NCBI GenBank assembly: GCA_947626785.1 | Contig: CANQTO010000021.1 | Span: forward strand, 1 to 39,415 | Direction of reading: 5' to 3' | DNA from: an uncultured Oscillospiraceae bacterium | GTDB lineage: Bacteria > Bacillota > Clostridia > Oscillospirales > Oscillospiraceae | DNA length: 39,415 bases | Part shown: piece after piece, positions 10,164 through 32,359 of the stretch | How the letters are laid out: every line of letters starts with the position of its first letter | Position numbering within the stretch: the first letter of the stretch is position 1 | Program-made: the position numbers and the translations under genes | Notes under the pieces: model-generated | Databases searched by the model: none | Told to the model about the DNA's origin: nothing | What the model saw: only the letters and a program-made list of their open reading frames with translations

Positions 10164-10240
10164 GGCCGAGTAGTTCAGTCGGTTAGAACGCCGGCCTGTC
10201 ACGCCGGAGGTCGAGGGTTCAAGTCCCTTCTCGGTCGCCA
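10164..10240 (+). tRNA. tRNA-Asp (GTC)
   Basis: 77 nt with encoded CCA. Acceptor stem GGCCGAG/CTCGGTC, anticodon stem CCGGC/GCCGG enclosing CTGTCAC (anticodon GTC at 10198-10200), and T-loop TTCAAGT all fold normally. Confidence 0.98.
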
Positions 10241-10241
10241 C

Positions 10242-10266
10242 ATATGCCCCTTTCTTAGGGGCATAT
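10242..10266 (+). other. Inter-tRNA hairpin
   Basis: ATATGCCCC pairs with GGGGCATAT around a 7-nt loop in the spacer between the two tRNAs. The T tail is weak, so it may be a processing signal or partial terminator. Confidence 0.55.
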
Positions 10267-10271
10267 CATTT

Positions 10272-10347
<76 letters not shown>

Positions 10348-10389: not shown

Positions 10390-11808
10390 CTATGAAACTT
10401 CCTCTTTTTTGGGTTTTGGGGTGATTTTGGGGTGAATGTCGTTCTGAAACCGATCCATCACCTCCGCGGCCCGGGCCTCTGCGGAAGCTATGACGTGGGA
10501 ATAGATGTTGCTGGTGGTGCTGACCTGGGCGTGGCCCAGGTTGCCGGCAACGACCACCAGAGGGGTGTGGTCGGCAATCAGCAGGCTCGCGTACGTGTGC
10601 CGCAGCGAATGGATACTGCTGGACGGCAGCCCGGTCCGCTTGATGAACTTCCCCATCCATTGGGTGATGGAGGTCGGGAACAGGGGCCGGCCCAGCTCGT
10701 TGGTGAAGACCCGGTCGTCCTCCGGGTCCCCCTCCCAGGCGTCTCCGACTTTCTTACGCAGCTCATCCTGCCAGGCCTGATACTCCAACAGGAGGAGGAC
10801 CGCCGTCCGGGAAATCTTCAGATAGCGGGCGGAGTCTTCCGTCTTGGGCGTGCCGACGTAGGTACCGAAGCCGGAGACATAGTTGGAGGTCTGGAAGATA
10901 CGGATCACCTGATCGTCCAGGTCCACGTCCTGCCAGCGGAGGCCCAGCAGCTCCGCCCGGCGCAGGCCGGAGAGCAGATCGAAGATGATCGGGGCCCGCC
11001 ACTTGATGGGCTCATCCTGGAGCAACTGAAGAAGCCGTTTAGCGTCGGGCTCGTCCAGATACCGGGCCTTGTGCCCGGCCAGCGAAGGGAGCTCCACCTT
11101 GTCCGCCGGGTTGGAGGGGATGAACCGCCATTTGACGGCCCTCTCCAGGATGGAGGAGAGGGTCCGGTAGTAGGAGTGGACCGTGGCCGGGGCCAGGGGC
11201 GCGGTGTCCTTTCTGACGGTAAACAGGACCTTCAGCTCGACGCCGGCAGCGGCGGCGATCTTCTCCGCCGAGGACAGGGCGACAGGGGCGCCGCCGAGAG
11301 CGGCCGACACCGTCTGATGAGCAAGGCCCGCCTCTTTGGCCAGGGCGCTCTGCGTGGTCTTGTTCGCCTTCATCCATTCGCCGAGGGCGGCGTTGGCTGT
11401 GGCGGTGGTATGCTGCCGGACGCCCTCCTCCTGAAGGTTTTTTATAAAGGCCTGAAGGTGGAGAGCGGTCAGGTCCTTCAGGCGGATATGGCCGATGGCC
11501 TTATTGATCCGGACCAGGTTCCTCTTATAGTTTGCCTGAGTGGTGGGCTTTAAATTATGGGGGGCGTACTCCTCCATATACCGGGCGGCGAAGTCCGCGA
11601 AGCGGATCGAGCCGTCCGAGACCTGACCGTTCCTGACCTGCTCCTCAAACTGCACGACCTGGCGGTTCAGCTCCTTCTCAAGCTGCCGGGCCGTCAGCTT
11701 CCTGTCCGGGGTCCAGACCATGCGGCGGCGGATCTGCTTCCCGTCCATGTCCACGCCGTCGGCCACGGTGATCCGATACCCTTTGCCGCGCTTTTCTACA
11801 GTCGCCAT
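10390..11808 (-). CDS. int: Tyrosine integrase with an inserted helix-turn-helix segment, 472 aa
   Basis: Catalyses site-specific integration and, with an excisionase, excision. It has an N-terminal arm-binding domain (1-60), a core-binding domain starting at about 68, and a catalytic domain from about 245. Catalytic residues visible: R283 in SGLRRAELLGLRW, K322 on the beta hairpin, H400 and R403 in SIHSLRHTYAS, H426 in LGHAQVSTT, and nucleophile Y436 in NIYSHV. Residues about 138-200 look like an XRE-type HTH (ANKTTQSALAKEAGLAHQTV, then SSAEKIAAAAGVELKVLF) set into the core-binding domain, which then resumes at LAPATVHSYYRTLSSIL. Normal phage integrases are about 380 aa, the difference being this segment. 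ATG start with GGAGG upstream. Confidence 0.95.
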   Translation of the reverse strand: MATVEKRGKGYRITVADGVDMDGKQIRRRMVWTPDRKLTARQLEKELNRQVVQFEEQVRNGQVSDGSIRFADFAARYMEEYAPHNLKPTTQANYKRNLVRINKAIGHIRLKDLTALHLQAFIKNLQEEGVRQHTTATANAALGEWMKANKTTQSALAKEAGLAHQTVSAALGGAPVALSSAEKIAAAAGVELKVLFTVRKDTAPLAPATVHSYYRTLSSILERAVKWRFIPSNPADKVELPSLAGHKARYLDEPDAKRLLQLLQDEPIKWRAPIIFDLLSGLRRAELLGLRWQDVDLDDQVIRIFQTSNYVSGFGTYVGTPKTEDSARYLKISRTAVLLLLEYQAWQDELRKKVGDAWEGDPEDDRVFTNELGRPLFPTSITQWMGKFIKRTGLPSSSIHSLRHTYASLLIADHTPLVVVAGNLGHAQVSTTSNIYSHVIASAEARAAEVMDRFQNDIHPKITPKPKKEEVS

Positions 11809-26636: not shown

Positions 26637-27797
26637 ATGAGCTTTATTGATTACCTGCGCCCGCAGAATCTGCGGCAGATATACCGGCAGTGGAAGGAGT
26701 TGGGGGCCTACAGAGCGGACTTCACACCTTTCGGGACCGATATCTTCAAGTCAGACGCGGTGCGCGCCTGCGTCCGCACGCTGGCGGACTTCACCGGGAA
26801 GGCGGAGGTAAAATGCTCTGACAGCCGGCTTCAGCATATACTCAACGACCGCCCTAACCTCTACATGAACGGCCACGACTTCCTCCGGAAAGTCAGGACG
26901 ATCTATGAGCTGAAAAACACCGTGTTCATCTGCATCATGCGCGATGACCGGGGCCGGGCGATAGGATTCTATCCGGTCCCATGCGCAAGCTACGAGGCGA
27001 TCGAATATCAGGGCAGACTCTATATCCGGTTCTTTTTTACAGGCGAGGCGGCACGGGAGCTCGTTTTCCCCTGGGAGGACCTGGCGGTGCTCCGGAAGGA
27101 TTACAACGGGAGCGACATCGCCGGAGACGGCAACAGCGCCATTTTGCAGATGCTGGATGTCCTGAACACCACGAACCAGGGAATCGCCAACGCGGTGAAA
27201 TCCACGGCAAATCTGCGGGGGATCCTGAAGTCTACCAAGAGCATGCTGGACCCGGTCGACGTCAGGAAGCAGAAAGATCAATTCGTCAAGGATTACATGA
27301 CGCTGGAGAATGAGGGCGGCATTGCCTCTCTGGATGCTTCGCAGGAATTTACACCGATCACGATGAACCCGACGGTGACCGGATTCTCGACCTTGAAAGA
27401 GTTCCGGGAGAATGTGCAGCGGTATTTTGGCGTCAACGACAAAATCATCATGGGCGCCGCCTCGTCAGATGAAATCGAAGCCTTCTACGAAATGCGCATA
27501 GAGCCGTTCCTGGTGACTTTGTCCAGCGAACTGTACAGCCGGGTATACACGGAGCGGGAGCGGGCTTTCGCCAAAAACACCATCGTCTACGAGACAAACA
27601 AGCTCCAGTTCGCCAGCCTGGAAAAGAAGATCAAGATGTTCAAAGAGGTCGTGCTGTATGGCGGCATGACCGTCAACGAGTGGCGCGCCGGATGCAACAT
27701 GGGGCCGATCGAAGGCGGCGATGTGCGCATCATGCGTCTGGACGCCGCCAAAGCGGACGACAAAAAGGAGGAGGACGACAATGGCGATCAGGAATGA
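26637..27797 (+). CDS. HK97-type portal protein, 386 aa
   Basis: Dodecameric head vertex through which DNA passes. The stretch DAVRACVRTLADFTGKAEVK, then the long helix NTTNQGIANAVKSTANLRGI and the C-terminal part FGVNDKIIMGAASSDEIEAF match HK97-family portals. GAGACATG: the ATG lies one base after the terL stop region. The 3' end overlaps the protease gene by 17 bp. Confidence 0.93.
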   Translation: MSFIDYLRPQNLRQIYRQWKELGAYRADFTPFGTDIFKSDAVRACVRTLADFTGKAEVKCSDSRLQHILNDRPNLYMNGHDFLRKVRTIYELKNTVFICIMRDDRGRAIGFYPVPCASYEAIEYQGRLYIRFFFTGEAARELVFPWEDLAVLRKDYNGSDIAGDGNSAILQMLDVLNTTNQGIANAVKSTANLRGILKSTKSMLDPVDVRKQKDQFVKDYMTLENEGGIASLDASQEFTPITMNPTVTGFSTLKEFRENVQRYFGVNDKIIMGAASSDEIEAFYEMRIEPFLVTLSSELYSRVYTERERAFAKNTIVYETNKLQFASLEKKIKMFKEVVLYGGMTVNEWRAGCNMGPIEGGDVRIMRLDAAKADDKKEEDDNGDQE

Positions 27798-28386
27798 TAG
27801 AGAGTACAGGAATTACAGTTTCCCGCTGGAGGCCCGCCAGGCCGGGGACGATGATTACCAGGTTGCGGGTTACGCAGCCACCTTTGAGCCGTATGTGCTC
27901 TACACCATCGACGGCGTGGACTACATAGAGCGGATCGCCCCGGACGCCTTCGACGGGGCGGACATGTCCGATGTGATCTTTGTCTTCAACCATGAGGGCA
28001 TGGTATTTGCCCGGAAGAAGAACGGCACGCTGGACCTGAGCGTGGATGAGCATGGCCTGAAGATCAAGGCCGATCTGTCCAAGACCGAAGCGGCCAGACA
28101 GATATACGAGAGCATCCGCGCAAAACTCATCGATCAGATGAGCTTCGCCTTTCGGGTCCGGGAGGACAGCTACGACAGGGAGACCCACACCAGGACCATC
28201 CTGAAAATAGAAAAAGTCTACGACGTTTCACCGGTATCTCTTCCGGCCAACCCGGATACAGATATCAGCGCGGTTTCTGCCCGCGACTACCTCCACGGAG
28301 TGATGGAGGCAGAGAAAGCGGAGCGACTGGAGCGGGAGAAGAGACTCGCGCTGGCAAATGCGACCTACCACTACAAATCGATCTGA
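27781..28386 (+). CDS. HK97-type prohead protease, 201 aa
   Basis: Serine protease of family S78 that trims the capsid and scaffold. Domain from about 15 to 170: VAGYAATFEPYVLY, active-site His H71 in FNHEGM, active-site Ser S121 in QMSFAF, then IEKVYDVSPVSLPANP. ATG preceded by AAGGAGGAGG inside the portal gene. Confidence 0.92.
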   Translation: MAIRNDREYRNYSFPLEARQAGDDDYQVAGYAATFEPYVLYTIDGVDYIERIAPDAFDGADMSDVIFVFNHEGMVFARKKNGTLDLSVDEHGLKIKADLSKTEAARQIYESIRAKLIDQMSFAFRVREDSYDRETHTRTILKIEKVYDVSPVSLPANPDTDISAVSARDYLHGVMEAEKAERLEREKRLALANATYHYKSI

Positions 28387-28397
28387 GGAGGAAAAAC

Positions 28398-29573
28398 ATG
28401 AAAATCGAGGAACTGATGAATATGACACTGGGGAAGATCCAGACCCGCATCGCAGAGCTGGACACCGAGGTCGAAACCCTAAACGCGGGCGAGGCCACCG
28501 AGGAGGCCATTGCCCGGATCAATGCCGCTGCCGAGGAGCGGCGCATGCTTGACGCCCGCAAGAAGGATCTGGAGGACTTGGAGAAGCGCCAGAAGGGCGC
28601 ACAGCAGCTGGCCGGCGGAAGCGCCAGCGGAACCCTGCTGGAGCGCGGCGGCATGGGCGGCGAGGAGTCCGCCATTGAAAAGCGGGCCAAGACTCTGGTG
28701 GAGACGGGGCGCATGGAGATGCGCCAGCTCCTGAGCACCGGGACGCTGACCCCGGAGGCGGCCAAGAAGGAGATCGGAGAGCTGCCCACAGTGATGAGCT
28801 CTATCGTGGACGATGTGAACAGCTTCGAGCTGGAGGGCAACGGCGCGTGGACCTTCGCTTATCGCAAGACGGATAGTGTGGCGGCAGATGTCACCGAGGG
28901 GGAGACTATCGGCGGTACTGCCGGCAGCTTCGGCACCGGCAGGATCGAACCGTCCACCTGGGGCATCCTGGACGAGATCAGCAATCAGGTCAAGAAATTC
29001 AGCCCCTTGGCCTATGAGCAGAGCGTCCGCAATAACGCCTATCTGGCCCTGCGCCGGTTCGCGAAGAAGAAGATCACCAAGGCGATCCTGGACAGCGAGC
29101 TGGTGGACAAGGTGGAGACCATGGCCATCGACGAGAGCTTCCTGCGCACTCTGGTCCTGGGCTTCAACGGTGATGAGAGCGTAGCCGGAGGCACCAAGCT
29201 GTACCTGACCAAGGCAACGCTCCAGAAGCTGGGCAAGATCCGGGGGGCCAACGAGAAGAAGCCCCTGTATGAGATCACCTTCACCGATGAGAACAACGGC
29301 AAGATCAAGGAGGGCGGGACAGAAGTGACCTTCTCCATCCTGTCCGATCTGGCCGACACGGGCCTCATCGAGAGCGGTGCGAAGGATGTCATGATCTACG
29401 GCCAGATGAAGTCCGTGGACATGCCTCTGTGGGGCAACTTCGAGGTCAAGACCGACGAGGGCGGCGACTACTTCAAGCGGAACATGATGGGCATCCGGGG
29501 CCTCCAGACGGCCGGCGCCGGCGTGACCAGGCTCCACACCATTCAGGTCATCAACAACAAAGCAAACCCTTGA
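28398..29573 (+). CDS. HK97-fold major capsid protein, 391 aa
   Basis: The N-terminal 75 residues form a coiled coil (IAELDTEVETLNAGEATEEA, AEERRMLDARKKDLEDLEKR), the delta or scaffold domain normally removed by the protease. The HK97 fold follows: PTVMSSIVDDVNSFELEGN, then the conserved WGILDEISNQVKKFSPLA, KDVMIYGQMKSVDMPLWGNF and GIRGLQTAGAG. GAGGAGG precedes the ATG. The last codons, AAC CCT TGA, form part of a slippery heptamer; a -1 shift would extend the protein through the next frame. Confidence 0.95.
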   Translation: MKIEELMNMTLGKIQTRIAELDTEVETLNAGEATEEAIARINAAAEERRMLDARKKDLEDLEKRQKGAQQLAGGSASGTLLERGGMGGEESAIEKRAKTLVETGRMEMRQLLSTGTLTPEAAKKEIGELPTVMSSIVDDVNSFELEGNGAWTFAYRKTDSVAADVTEGETIGGTAGSFGTGRIEPSTWGILDEISNQVKKFSPLAYEQSVRNNAYLALRRFAKKKITKAILDSELVDKVETMAIDESFLRTLVLGFNGDESVAGGTKLYLTKATLQKLGKIRGANEKKPLYEITFTDENNGKIKEGGTEVTFSILSDLADTGLIESGAKDVMIYGQMKSVDMPLWGNFEVKTDEGGDYFKRNMMGIRGLQTAGAGVTRLHTIQVINNKANP

Positions 29574-29615
29574 TCGGGCCTGACGGAGTAAAGGTACCCG
29601 ACCAGAGTCAGGCCC
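29564..29615 (+). promoter_or_regulatory. Candidate programmed -1 frameshift signal at the capsid 3' end
   Basis: Slippery heptamer A AAC CCT (29564-29570) in the capsid frame, stop TGA right after, 5-nt gap, then GGGCCTGAC (29576-29584) paired perfectly with GTCAGGCCC (29607-29615). The -1 frame continues for 135 codons. Heptamer, spacing and stem are all of the standard form. Confidence 0.7.
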
Positions 29616-29977
29616 TGACAGGACTCGGCACCAAGACGGTGTCGGACCTTATCGGGGAAAACTTCAAGCTGACCGTAGCTGATACCACGGTCACAGCGAC
29701 CGGCGATGTGAAGAACATCAAGGAGCCGTGGACAGAATACGACGAGACGGACAACACCGGACACTTTGCCCCTTTGATCCTTCCGGCTACACTGAAAGAC
29801 CAGAAGATCATACTCGGCGGACGTACAGGCGGAGACAGGACCATCGAAAAGATGAGCGACGATCTCCTGCTGGTGGTCCGGTTGGAGAATCTGACCGAGG
29901 CCCAGGAACTGACCGTCAAGAAGGACGGCGAACTGGTGATGACGGTGGATTTCTCCGGCGTATCGAAGGAAAGCTGA
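29570..29977 (+). CDS. Beta-rich capsid-extension/decoration domain, 135 aa
   Basis: Begins at TTG within the capsid stop (TTGA) and lacks any ribosome site, so it is probably made as a C-terminal extension of the capsid by -1 frameshifting, giving about 526 residues; reinitiation at TTG is the alternative. The sequence is beta-rich: NFKLTVADTTVTATGDVKNI, then GHFAPLILPATLKDQKII, and the closing KKDGELVMTVDFSGV. Similar domains occur directly after capsid genes in Clostridia phages and may decorate the head surface; I see no named fold with certainty. Confidence 0.75.
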   Translation: MIGPDGVKVPDQSQALTGLGTKTVSDLIGENFKLTVADTTVTATGDVKNIKEPWTEYDETDNTGHFAPLILPATLKDQKIILGGRTGGDRTIEKMSDDLLLVVRLENLTEAQELTVKKDGELVMTVDFSGVSKES

Positions 29978-29997: not shown

Positions 29998-30282
29998 GTG
30001 CTGGAAAAGATAAAGATCGCCCTGCGGGTCAAAACGGACTACTTCGATGCGGAGATCAGTTCTGTCATCAAAGCGGCCCGGATGGAGCTCATCCGGGCCG
30101 GCGTCCGGCCAAAAAAGGCAAACAGCGACGATGACGAGCTGATCACCGCTGCCATCCGCGCCTACGTGCTGGCAAACTACGCCACCGACCAGGATCTGAA
30201 GGACGGATATATGAAGTCCTTCGACTGTCAAAAGGACTGCCTGCGTAAATCCAAAGGCTACAGAAACGAGGCCAGGACATGA
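29998..30282 (+). CDS. Head-tail connector (gp6-like), 94 aa
   Basis: All-helical: KIKIALRVKTDYFDAEISSV, RMELIRAGVRPKKAN and ITAAIRAYVLANYATDQDLK match HK97 gp6/DUF-type phage connector proteins that form a ring under the portal. GTG start with CAGGAGGG upstream; four-base overlap with the next gene. Confidence 0.85.
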   Translation: MLEKIKIALRVKTDYFDAEISSVIKAARMELIRAGVRPKKANSDDDELITAAIRAYVLANYATDQDLKDGYMKSFDCQKDCLRKSKGYRNEART

Positions 30283-31883: not shown

Positions 31884-32186
31884 ATGGTCAAAGAATTTCA
31901 AATCGGCGGAGAGAAGGTGCTTTTCAAAGCCTCTGCCGCGCTGCCTATCCTGTACCGGAATCTCACTGGGCGCAACTTCTTTGCCGACGTCTCCGATAAC
32001 GAGCGCTCTCTGGAGGTCGCCTGGTGCATGTATCGCCAAGCCAATCCGGATGTCCAGACAGATCTGGAGGCATGGCTGGACCGGTTCAGCTTTTCGGAGC
32101 TGTACAGCGCGCTGGGCGATATCCTCTCTATGCTGACAGAAAGCATGAAGAGCACTTCCAGCGCAAAAAAAAAGAACGTGAAATAG
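31884..32186 (+). CDS. Tail assembly chaperone, G-like, 100 aa
   Basis: FQIGGEKVLFKASAALPILY, then DVQTDLEAWLDRFSFSELYS and LTESMKSTSSAKKKN: the pattern of Gram-positive tail chaperones. It binds the tape measure during tube assembly. It ends in a Lys-rich tail encoded by nine A's, where ribosomes can slip by -1 to make the longer G-T protein of about 158 residues. Confidence 0.88.
   Translation: MVKEFQIGGEKVLFKASAALPILYRNLTGRNFFADVSDNERSLEVAWCMYRQANPDVQTDLEAWLDRFSFSELYSALGDILSMLTESMKSTSSAKKKNVK
32168..32174 (+). promoter_or_regulatory. Tail chaperone -1 frameshift heptamer A AAA AAG
   Basis: Within nine consecutive A's followed by G. Slipping back joins the G frame to the T frame that ends at 32359. 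This arrangement is conserved in tailed phages. Confidence 0.9.
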
Positions 32187-32359
32187 ACCGGGAGATGAAT
32201 GCCGCACTGTACGCGCTCAGGTGCGTACAGTGCGGCATCTCCATAGGCGACCTGGAGCACCTGTCCATCGGGCTGGTCTATGACATGTTCACGGAGGCCG
32301 CCAACGATGACTATGACTACCCGGTCAAGGCAACTCAGGAGGATATAGACCGGCTCTGA
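32174..32359 (+). CDS. T part of the G-T tail chaperone (frameshift product)
   Basis: Sixty-one residues in the -1 frame: EREIDREMNAALYALRCVQ, then ISIGDLEHLSIGLVYDMFTE. Short C-terminal T domains of this type are characteristic of siphophage chaperones. It has no ribosome site of its own at the internal ATG (32196), so it is made only as a fusion. Confidence 0.85.
   Translation, partial: EREIDREMNAALYALRCVQCGISIGDLEHLSIGLVYDMFTEAANDDYDYPVKATQEDIDRL

What the first reader, a model, noticed from the sequence alone, without database searches (positions are those of the whole stretch)
29564..29977. Programmed -1 frameshift extending the major capsid protein
The capsid gene ends AAC CCT TGA, forming A AAC CCT; the stop follows at once, and a perfect 9-bp GC-rich stem (GGGCCTGAC/GTCAGGCCC) starts 5 nt later. 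The -1 frame holds a 135-residue beta-rich domain without ribosome site. Heptamer, spacing, stem and open frame together fit programmed frameshifting, which is known to add Ig-like domains to some phage capsids. Here the added domain appears different, and a mixed capsid of short and long subunits is implied.
Basis: partly seen in the sequence, partly recalled or inferred. Interest (0 to 1): 0.8.

Follow-up and report, generated by a model that had tools for sequence, protein, structure and literature searches.

The report
Mobile frameshift cassette decorating phage capsids
At the end of its shell-protein gene this gut-bacterium prophage carries a roughly 410-base module, made of a ribosome slip site, a stop, an RNA hairpin and a small beta-rich domain, which appears to make a fraction of shell proteins longer and which seems to have moved as one piece between unrelated virus genes.

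Summary
The major capsid gene (28398-29573) ends A AAC CCT TGA. A perfect 9-bp stem starts 2 nt after the stop, and a 135-codon frame -1 ORF without a ribosome site follows. Programmed -1 frameshifting is well supported: of 33 non-identical junctions, window included, 32 have a stop with a stem starting within 5 nt, mostly behind a slip-like site (one, L105, has an A-run instead). The stem covaries (29 two-sided changes against 7.9 shuffled), and a close relative with the domain in frame has lost it. At 9 of 35 junctions no start codon exists nearby in the domain frame. DNA similarity between carriers with different upstream genes starts at the slip site (44 of 47 pairs) and does not pass the domain ORF by more than 17 nt. 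Upstream genes fall in nine PHROG families: several capsid families, a cement protein and others. The domain is a predicted beta-sandwich without a convincing Pfam family. Longer capsid subunits have not been seen experimentally; a display or adhesion role is inferred. Rating: new variant of a known kind (frameshift-added virion domains).

The parts
28398..29573 (+). major capsid protein gene, HK97 type (PF05065, phrog_10), 391 codons, ends ...AAA GCA AAC CCT TGA
29564..29570 (+). slippery heptamer A AAC CCT (AAC to AAA, CCT to CCC on a -1 slip)
   Evidence: family comparison
29571..29573 (+). zero-frame stop TGA, directly after the heptamer
   Evidence: a TAA or TGA in the same place at the other listed junctions except L105
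29576..29584 (+). 5' arm of the putative stimulatory stem, GGGCCTGAC
   Evidence: covariation
29607..29615 (+). 3' arm of the stem, GTCAGGCCC
   Evidence: covariation
29570..29977 (+). -1 frame ORF (135 codons plus stop): linker encoded by the stem-loop, then a predicted beta-sandwich domain
29564..29977 (+). putative mobile cassette: slip site, stop, stem and domain; about the stretch shared with carriers that have other upstream genes (BLAST edges -5 to -7 and +388 to +400 from the stop)
27721..28386 (+). prohead protease (Peptidase_S78), neighbour; the listed start may lie too far upstream
30001..30282 (+). head-tail connector gene, next gene after the cassette

Best explanation
Most ribosomes stop at TGA 29571 and make the 391-residue capsid protein. 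A minority, held by the stem 5 nt ahead, slip back one base on A AAC CCT (Asn and Pro tRNAs re-pairing on AAA CCC), miss the stop and add 135 residues, giving a subunit of about 526 residues whose extra C-terminal beta-sandwich is displayed on the capsid. Slip site, stop, stem and domain form one mobile cassette of about 410 bp that can be attached behind the last codons of many virion genes and brings its own recoding signal, so the domain is made at a fraction of the parent protein. Shown by sequence: the anatomy, covariation, loss of the stem in an in-frame relative, island-like DNA sharing. Inferred: that slipping occurs and at what rate, that the fusion enters virions, and that the domain serves adhesion or surface contact.
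For: (1) 33 non-identical junctions, window included; the longest stem starts exactly 2 nt after the stop in 23 of 33 and within 0-5 nt in all, though for L105 that stem is not convincing. Every junction examined that was not an in-frame fusion lay in the -1 frame; the list was built by looking for a stop in that frame, and four rows (L033, L034, L035, L037) were found by a pattern that fixes slip site and 5' arm, so only their 3' arm, upstream ORF and domain are independent. (2) Covariation on 30 related rows: 29 cells changed on both sides against 7.9, 0 of 500 shuffles as high; one pair occurs as CG, GC, UA and AU; RNAalifold finds a 6-bp core of the helix by itself. (3) Natural control: L100 has a domain 82% identical to that of L034 but fused in frame to a capsid gene; its arms match 3 of 9 against 9 of 9 in L033, L034, L035 and L101. 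(4) The cassette model R1, over 66 sources, gives 37 sense-strand matches (repeats included), all at such junctions, and 4 antisense ones (E 0.35-0.59); none in 22 domain-less capsid loci or 8 in-frame loci. In 394 genomes its 10 matches were all junctions, but all ten were training sequences or copies of them. (5) 19 of 35 junctions lack ATG/TTG over the stop, 9 of 35 have no ATG/GTG/TTG from codon -10 to +16. (6) In-frame fusions of the domain to capsid, tail tube and sheath proteins exist. (7) CCT is 9% of Pro codons in ten window genes yet used at 12 of 12 sites of that type (related sites, not independent).
Against: No proteomic or reporter data. Only 8 of 33 junctions have a full XXXYYYZ heptamer; N GAC CCT and G GGG GAA allow good re-pairing of one tRNA only, so the slip may depend on a slow stop codon rather than on two-tRNA slippage. 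L019 (G CCG GAA) and L105 (A-run, stop later) do not fit the motif. L026 and L031 have only 5 and 6 uninterrupted pairs. The folding z-score at the window is modest. Two junctions (L022, L081) have a 5-nt and five others (L013, L014 first site, L016, L017, L037) a 4-nt Shine-Dalgarno match before an overlapping or adjacent start. The window itself has a TTG over the stop, so re-initiation there is not excluded by sequence. Synonymous changes in the stem codons were not clearly suppressed.
Confidence: 0.88

Rival explanations
1. Termination-reinitiation: ribosomes end at TGA and restart on the overlapping TTG (or ATG), making the domain as a free protein.
For: The window has TTG over the stop; 16 of 35 junctions have TTG or ATG there, two of them (L022, L081) with a 5-nt and five with a 4-nt Shine-Dalgarno match. 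Gene callers list the domain as a separate protein.
Against: 19 of 35 have ATA, TTA or CTA there and 9 of 35 no start within codons -10 to +16. It does not explain the covarying stem or its loss in the in-frame relative.
Confidence: 0.06
2. Transcriptional slippage on G or A runs instead of ribosomal slipping.
For: Many relatives have G5-G6 runs and L105 an A9 run. P0158 looks like a fusion made permanent by a change in the run (protein only).
Against: Of the 12 junctions with A AAC CCT or N GAC CCT, the window among them, 10 have no run of 5 within 15 nt before the stop (L014 second site and L016 have G5); a stem at near-fixed distance is a translational signal.
Confidence: 0.03
3. The stem is a terminator or the -1 ORF is a broken gene; the arrangement is accidental.
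For: The stem is GC-rich.
Against: No T run after the 3' arm; the head genes continue on the same strand. The domain frame is conserved in 32 proteins, and outside the stem third-position differences are the most numerous in 15 of 15 pairs of six relatives.
Confidence: 0.01

Closest known systems
-1 frameshifted virion proteins of phages T3/T7, Lactobacillus phage A2, Listeria A118/A500 (passage in PMC5009743)
   Same: Two products from one coat (or tail) protein gene, the longer one by -1 frameshifting.
   Different: Here the domain is another sequence family and slip, stem and domain are shared by unrelated genes as one DNA unit. The original A2 papers were not read (not held).
Promiscuous Ig-like domains on phages (Fraser et al. 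2006; seen only as a reference and through the PMC5009743 passage)
   Same: A C-terminal beta domain found on different virion proteins, by frameshift or in frame.
   Different: No Ig-like/FN3/Big Pfam match in 31 members. The review passage suggests that domains land in or out of frame by recombination and frameshifting is sometimes selected afterwards; here the recoding signal appears to arrive with the domain.
+1 shifty stops: 936 phages and SPP1 (PMC4759559 and PMC8718954 passages), PSA (legend in PMC5009743)
   Same: Slip at or near the stop codon adds a domain to a tail or capsid protein.
   Different: Direction is +1 there and -1 here.
K1F gene 10/10b display (PMC13370021 passages)
   Same: A natural -1 site gives minor capsid subunits with an added C-terminus; adhesin domains placed there enhanced epithelial adherence.
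   Different: There the domains were added by engineering; here nature appears to do it with a movable module.
phrog_31690 (unknown function)
   Same: Profile matched by 8 of 31 domain members and by in-frame fusions (9 of 10).
   Different: The window's own domain does not reach it.

Membership tests
Programmed -1 ribosomal frameshifting of a virion gene | slippery site allowing -1 re-pairing before the stop | tested here: met
   A AAC CCT in the window; XXXYYYZ in 8 of 33, partial forms in most others
Programmed -1 ribosomal frameshifting of a virion gene | downstream RNA structure at short distance, conserved by covariation | tested here: met
Programmed -1 ribosomal frameshifting of a virion gene | -1 frame conserved as protein | tested here: met
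Programmed -1 ribosomal frameshifting of a virion gene | -1 frame without start signals of its own | tested here: inconclusive
   clear at 9 of 35 junctions; the window has a TTG over the stop without Shine-Dalgarno match
Programmed -1 ribosomal frameshifting of a virion gene | fusion product made in cells or found in virions | not testable with these tools
   needs proteomics or a reporter
Phage Ig-like domains | sequence match to an Ig-like/FN3/Big Pfam family | tested here: not met
   0 families for the window domain; 31 members gave 7 weak families (best PF18221 MU2_FHA, 4 members, E 0.00097), none of them a phage Ig-like, FN3 or Big family
Phage Ig-like domains | Ig-like fold | tested here: inconclusive
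Phage Ig-like domains | promiscuous attachment to several virion proteins, mostly at the C-terminus | tested here: met
Termination-reinitiation gene pair | start codon overlapping the stop in all members | tested here: not met
   16 of 35 only
HK97-type major capsid protein (PF05065) | Pfam score above gathering threshold | tested here: met
   25.5 bits against 24.2; TIGR01554 below its cut-off, 25.1 against 27.5

The most novel reading that the evidence does not exclude
A portable recoding element: a self-contained block of about 410 bp holding slip site, stop, stimulatory hairpin and display domain, which recombines as one unit onto the 3' ends of non-homologous virion genes (capsid families, cement protein, a phrog_3099 protein) across gut Clostridia phages, so that any new host gene at once makes a minor share of decorated subunits. 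The RNA signal and the protein domain are selected and inherited together.
Probability: 0.7. Interest if true: 0.82.

Novelty: new variant of a known kind. Interest (0 to 1): 0.74.

Why it matters
Frameshift-added domains on phage virions are known, but the published suggestion (PMC5009743 passage) is that the domain lands out of frame and frameshifting is then selected. Here the frameshift signal appears to move with the domain, which would make recoding a transferable trait and explain how a domain can be put on unrelated capsids without overloading them. Gene callers split this virion protein in two, also in Flavonifractor phage Chenonceau from a cultured host, so the idea can be tested directly.

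Tried and rejected
TTG/ATG re-initiation, transcriptional slippage, terminator and pseudogene readings were tested and set aside (see rivals). +1 slipping: frame +1 after CCT reads GAT CGG GCC TGA and stops at once. DNA pattern RACCCTTRANNGGNCCTGA in viral contigs: 25 hits, none a real junction. Pattern GGGGGAATRANNGGGNCTGA: 6 of 6 real, two of them copies of others; GGGGGGTTRANNGGGNCTGA: 3 of 5 real. Domain searches in viral contigs with the window's own domain or A1 found nothing; A3 was too divergent to search with; the L034 domain found 7. In the phages collection the window domain found nothing, the L034 domain 2 records, and in plasmids none. Domain over the phylum: only the own genome of 398. 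No solved structure by sequence below E 0.3; neither Foldseek search gave a match at E 0.001 in the PDB, which does not prove a new fold. Upstream-block identities came from a poorly set aligner and are not used; BLAST replaced them. A synonymous-change test in the stem codons was not clear-cut. Long in-frame ORFs in L089 and L091 were not examined at the junction. A pseudoknot and flanking repeats were not tested. Print search: searches listed no paper that I recognised as being on this module (20 best shown at most; most subscription papers are not held).

Full report
What is there. The window looks like a prophage: two tRNA genes at 10164-10344 with an integrase-like ORF beside them (10390-11808, minus; by eye, not searched), then head genes and tail genes (by eye). 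The capsid gene 28398-29573 (PF05065, phrog_10) ends A AAC CCT TGA, followed by TC and a perfect 9-bp stem with a 22-nt loop; the -1 frame stays open for 135 codons, then come the connector genes. Every stated feature is real. Taken alone it is suggestive rather than decisive: 12 XXXYYYZ-plus-stop strings exist in the window, 20 of 1878 stop triplets have as good a stem, and 22 of 20000 synonymous shuffles of the first 25 codons do as well.

The junctions. Loci came from genome contigs (7 loci: 6 Oscillospiraceae and 1 Lachnospiraceae MAG), 394 genomes of the window's order (9 with the domain, own included), 400 of the family (16, own included), viral contigs and two phage records. One search took 37 junctions, dropped 4 identical ones (L036, L038, L077, L078) and lists 33: G GGG GAA 16, A AAC CCT 5, G GAC CCT 5, C GAC CCT 2, G GGG GGT 3, L019 G CCG GAA, and L105, which has an A-run upstream and a stop later. 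Loci that repeat the same place (such as L066-L076, L080, L099, L102-L104, L118) were not entered. Some of the 33 are close kin. A TAA or TGA follows directly in all but L105. The longest stem starts 2 nt after the stop in 23 of 33 and within 0-5 nt in the rest (L105's is not convincing). L117 and L119 were added later, making 35. L033, L034, L035, L037, L117 and L119 were found with a pattern that fixes slip site and 5' arm, so these features are theirs by selection.

Why ribosomal frameshifting. The stem covaries: on 30 cassettes 91.3% of cells pair, 29 cells are changed on both sides (shuffled mean 7.9; 0 of 500 as high; the rows are related, so this is not a probability), and sliding the partner by one column drops pairing to about 50%; RNAalifold finds six of the nine pairs unaided on 21 rows. 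The commonest double change alters the amino acid on both sides of the linker (P/A/S/T against A/P/T/S), so the RNA pairing, not the protein, is kept. L101 carries a G-C to C-G double change within a 9/9 stem. In L100 the domain, 82% identical to that of L034, sits in frame on a phrog_10 capsid protein, and there the arms match 3 of 9. The R1 model over 66 sources found 37 sense matches, all at junctions, 4 weak antisense ones, and no match in 22 domain-less capsid loci or 8 in-frame loci (no domain in those 22); it missed L105. In 394 genomes it found 10 places, all domain junctions and all in its training set or copies of it, so this shows specificity only. Nine junctions outside the training set were found (L064, L065, L079, L081, L082, L083, L084, L085, L101; L082 only at E 0.042). 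Start codons are not kept: the codon over the stop is ATA 12, TTG 11, TTA 6, ATG 5, CTA 1 of 35, and 9 of 35 have no start from -10 to +16. Many in-frame fusions exist: 26 proteins, 11 of them listed with PF05065 and one with a tail sheath domain; ten of the 26 were checked in PHROGs, and seven matched capsid, tail tube or sheath families. P0158 looks like the L101 type with the slip made permanent (SGGIIASD, protein only, sequencing error not excluded).

The mobile unit. Upstream genes belong to phrog_10, 544, 212, 267 and 909 (all described as major head protein; the 909 one has 129 residues), 563 (cement, PF22758), 3270 (head maturation protease), 5707 and 3099 (unknown). Nine labels were given by likeness to a searched protein, not by a search: L014 first site, L015, L016, L029, L035, L064, L085, L101, L117. 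The domain tree (33 rows; L033 and L119 left out) mixes the labels: 14 changes where 8 is the least possible; the shuffled mean is 17.2, as low in 5 of 200, so there is some clustering; the program warns of long branches; the window's copy groups with four phrog_544 copies (97/93). BLAST of 373 pairs with different upstream families (32 junctions) gave 47 with similarity over the junction, the other 326 being too far apart at E 1e-5; in 44 of 47 the similarity starts between -15 and +5 of the stop (median -8; the heptamer starts at -7), 2 start at -22 and 1 at +53; the right edge passes the end of the first row's domain ORF by at most 17 nt; 2 pairs have other similarity in the flanks searched (up to -1500 and +1800, less where the locus is short). 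L064 (Chenonceau) and L065 share 10 of 10 slip bases, 67 of 70 over the cassette and 244 of 300 in the domain, but 5 of 20 just upstream, and nothing else within about 4 kb at E 1e-3. The window against L013, L015, L016 and L017 also shows one island each, starting at -5 to -7, with shorter flanks for L015 and L017; L117 against L118 shows the island and two short pieces far upstream. So the RNA signal and the domain are shared together. How the unit recombines is unknown.

Likely role. The module sits on proteins that mostly belong to the virion outside (capsid, cement, tail tube, sheath). The same domain occurs in long cell-surface-like bacterial proteins (L086 with a signal-peptide-like start, by eye, and a divergent InlB-type repeat; L090 with five copies). 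This fits adhesion to cells or glycans at low copy, as reported or proposed for other domains on K1F and SPP1 (passages of PMC13370021 and PMC8718954). That is inference.

Limits. No product has been seen. The exact slip mechanism is open, because N GAC CCT and G GGG GAA fit two-tRNA slippage poorly; stop-assisted slipping of one tRNA would fit several types. Genome sampling covers one order, a Lachnospiraceae MAG and viral contigs; 398 genomes across the phylum gave only the window's own copy. Papers were seen as listings or passages only; Fraser 2006, Garcia 2004, Rodriguez 2005 and Zimmer 2003 only as references.

Noticed in passing
window 31884-32359: Tail-chaperone-like gene pair with an A9 run at 32165-32173 (GCA AAA AAA AAG AAC) and a -1 frame continuing to 32359: a second likely -1 frameshift in the same prophage, the lambda G/GT kind (recalled; not searched).
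   Followed up: no
L064 4001-4402 (ON453904 27950-28351): Flavonifractor phage Chenonceau has the module (G GGG GGT TAA), but its domain is annotated as a separate protein from a TTG inside the domain (WAK79811.1).
   Followed up: partly
L086 337-3411, L090 1-2868: The same domain in long secreted-looking bacterial proteins, up to five copies in one ORF.
   Followed up: partly
L018 4001-4735, L021 1495-2241, L024 1498-2292, L079, L081, L082: The -1 ORF is long enough for a second domain copy (L021), or holds two by profile (the others), behind a single frameshift site.
   Followed up: partly
L013 4001 and 6883; L014 1698 and 4580: Two separate cassettes in one locus, one behind the capsid gene and one behind a phrog_3099 gene about 2.9 kb downstream.
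   Followed up: partly
P0173: Tail sheath protein (651 aa) with the domain profile phrog_31690 matching at residues 131-174, that is, inside the protein and not at its end.
   Followed up: no
P0034: Capsid protein 93% identical to the window's that ends in SGE, not ANP, as if the cassette had been exchanged for the GGG GAA type; only the protein was available.
   Followed up: no
L105 2950-3010: A relative in a viral contig uses an A9 run and no cassette stem, a different solution for the same fusion; a slip in transcription is possible there.
   Followed up: partly
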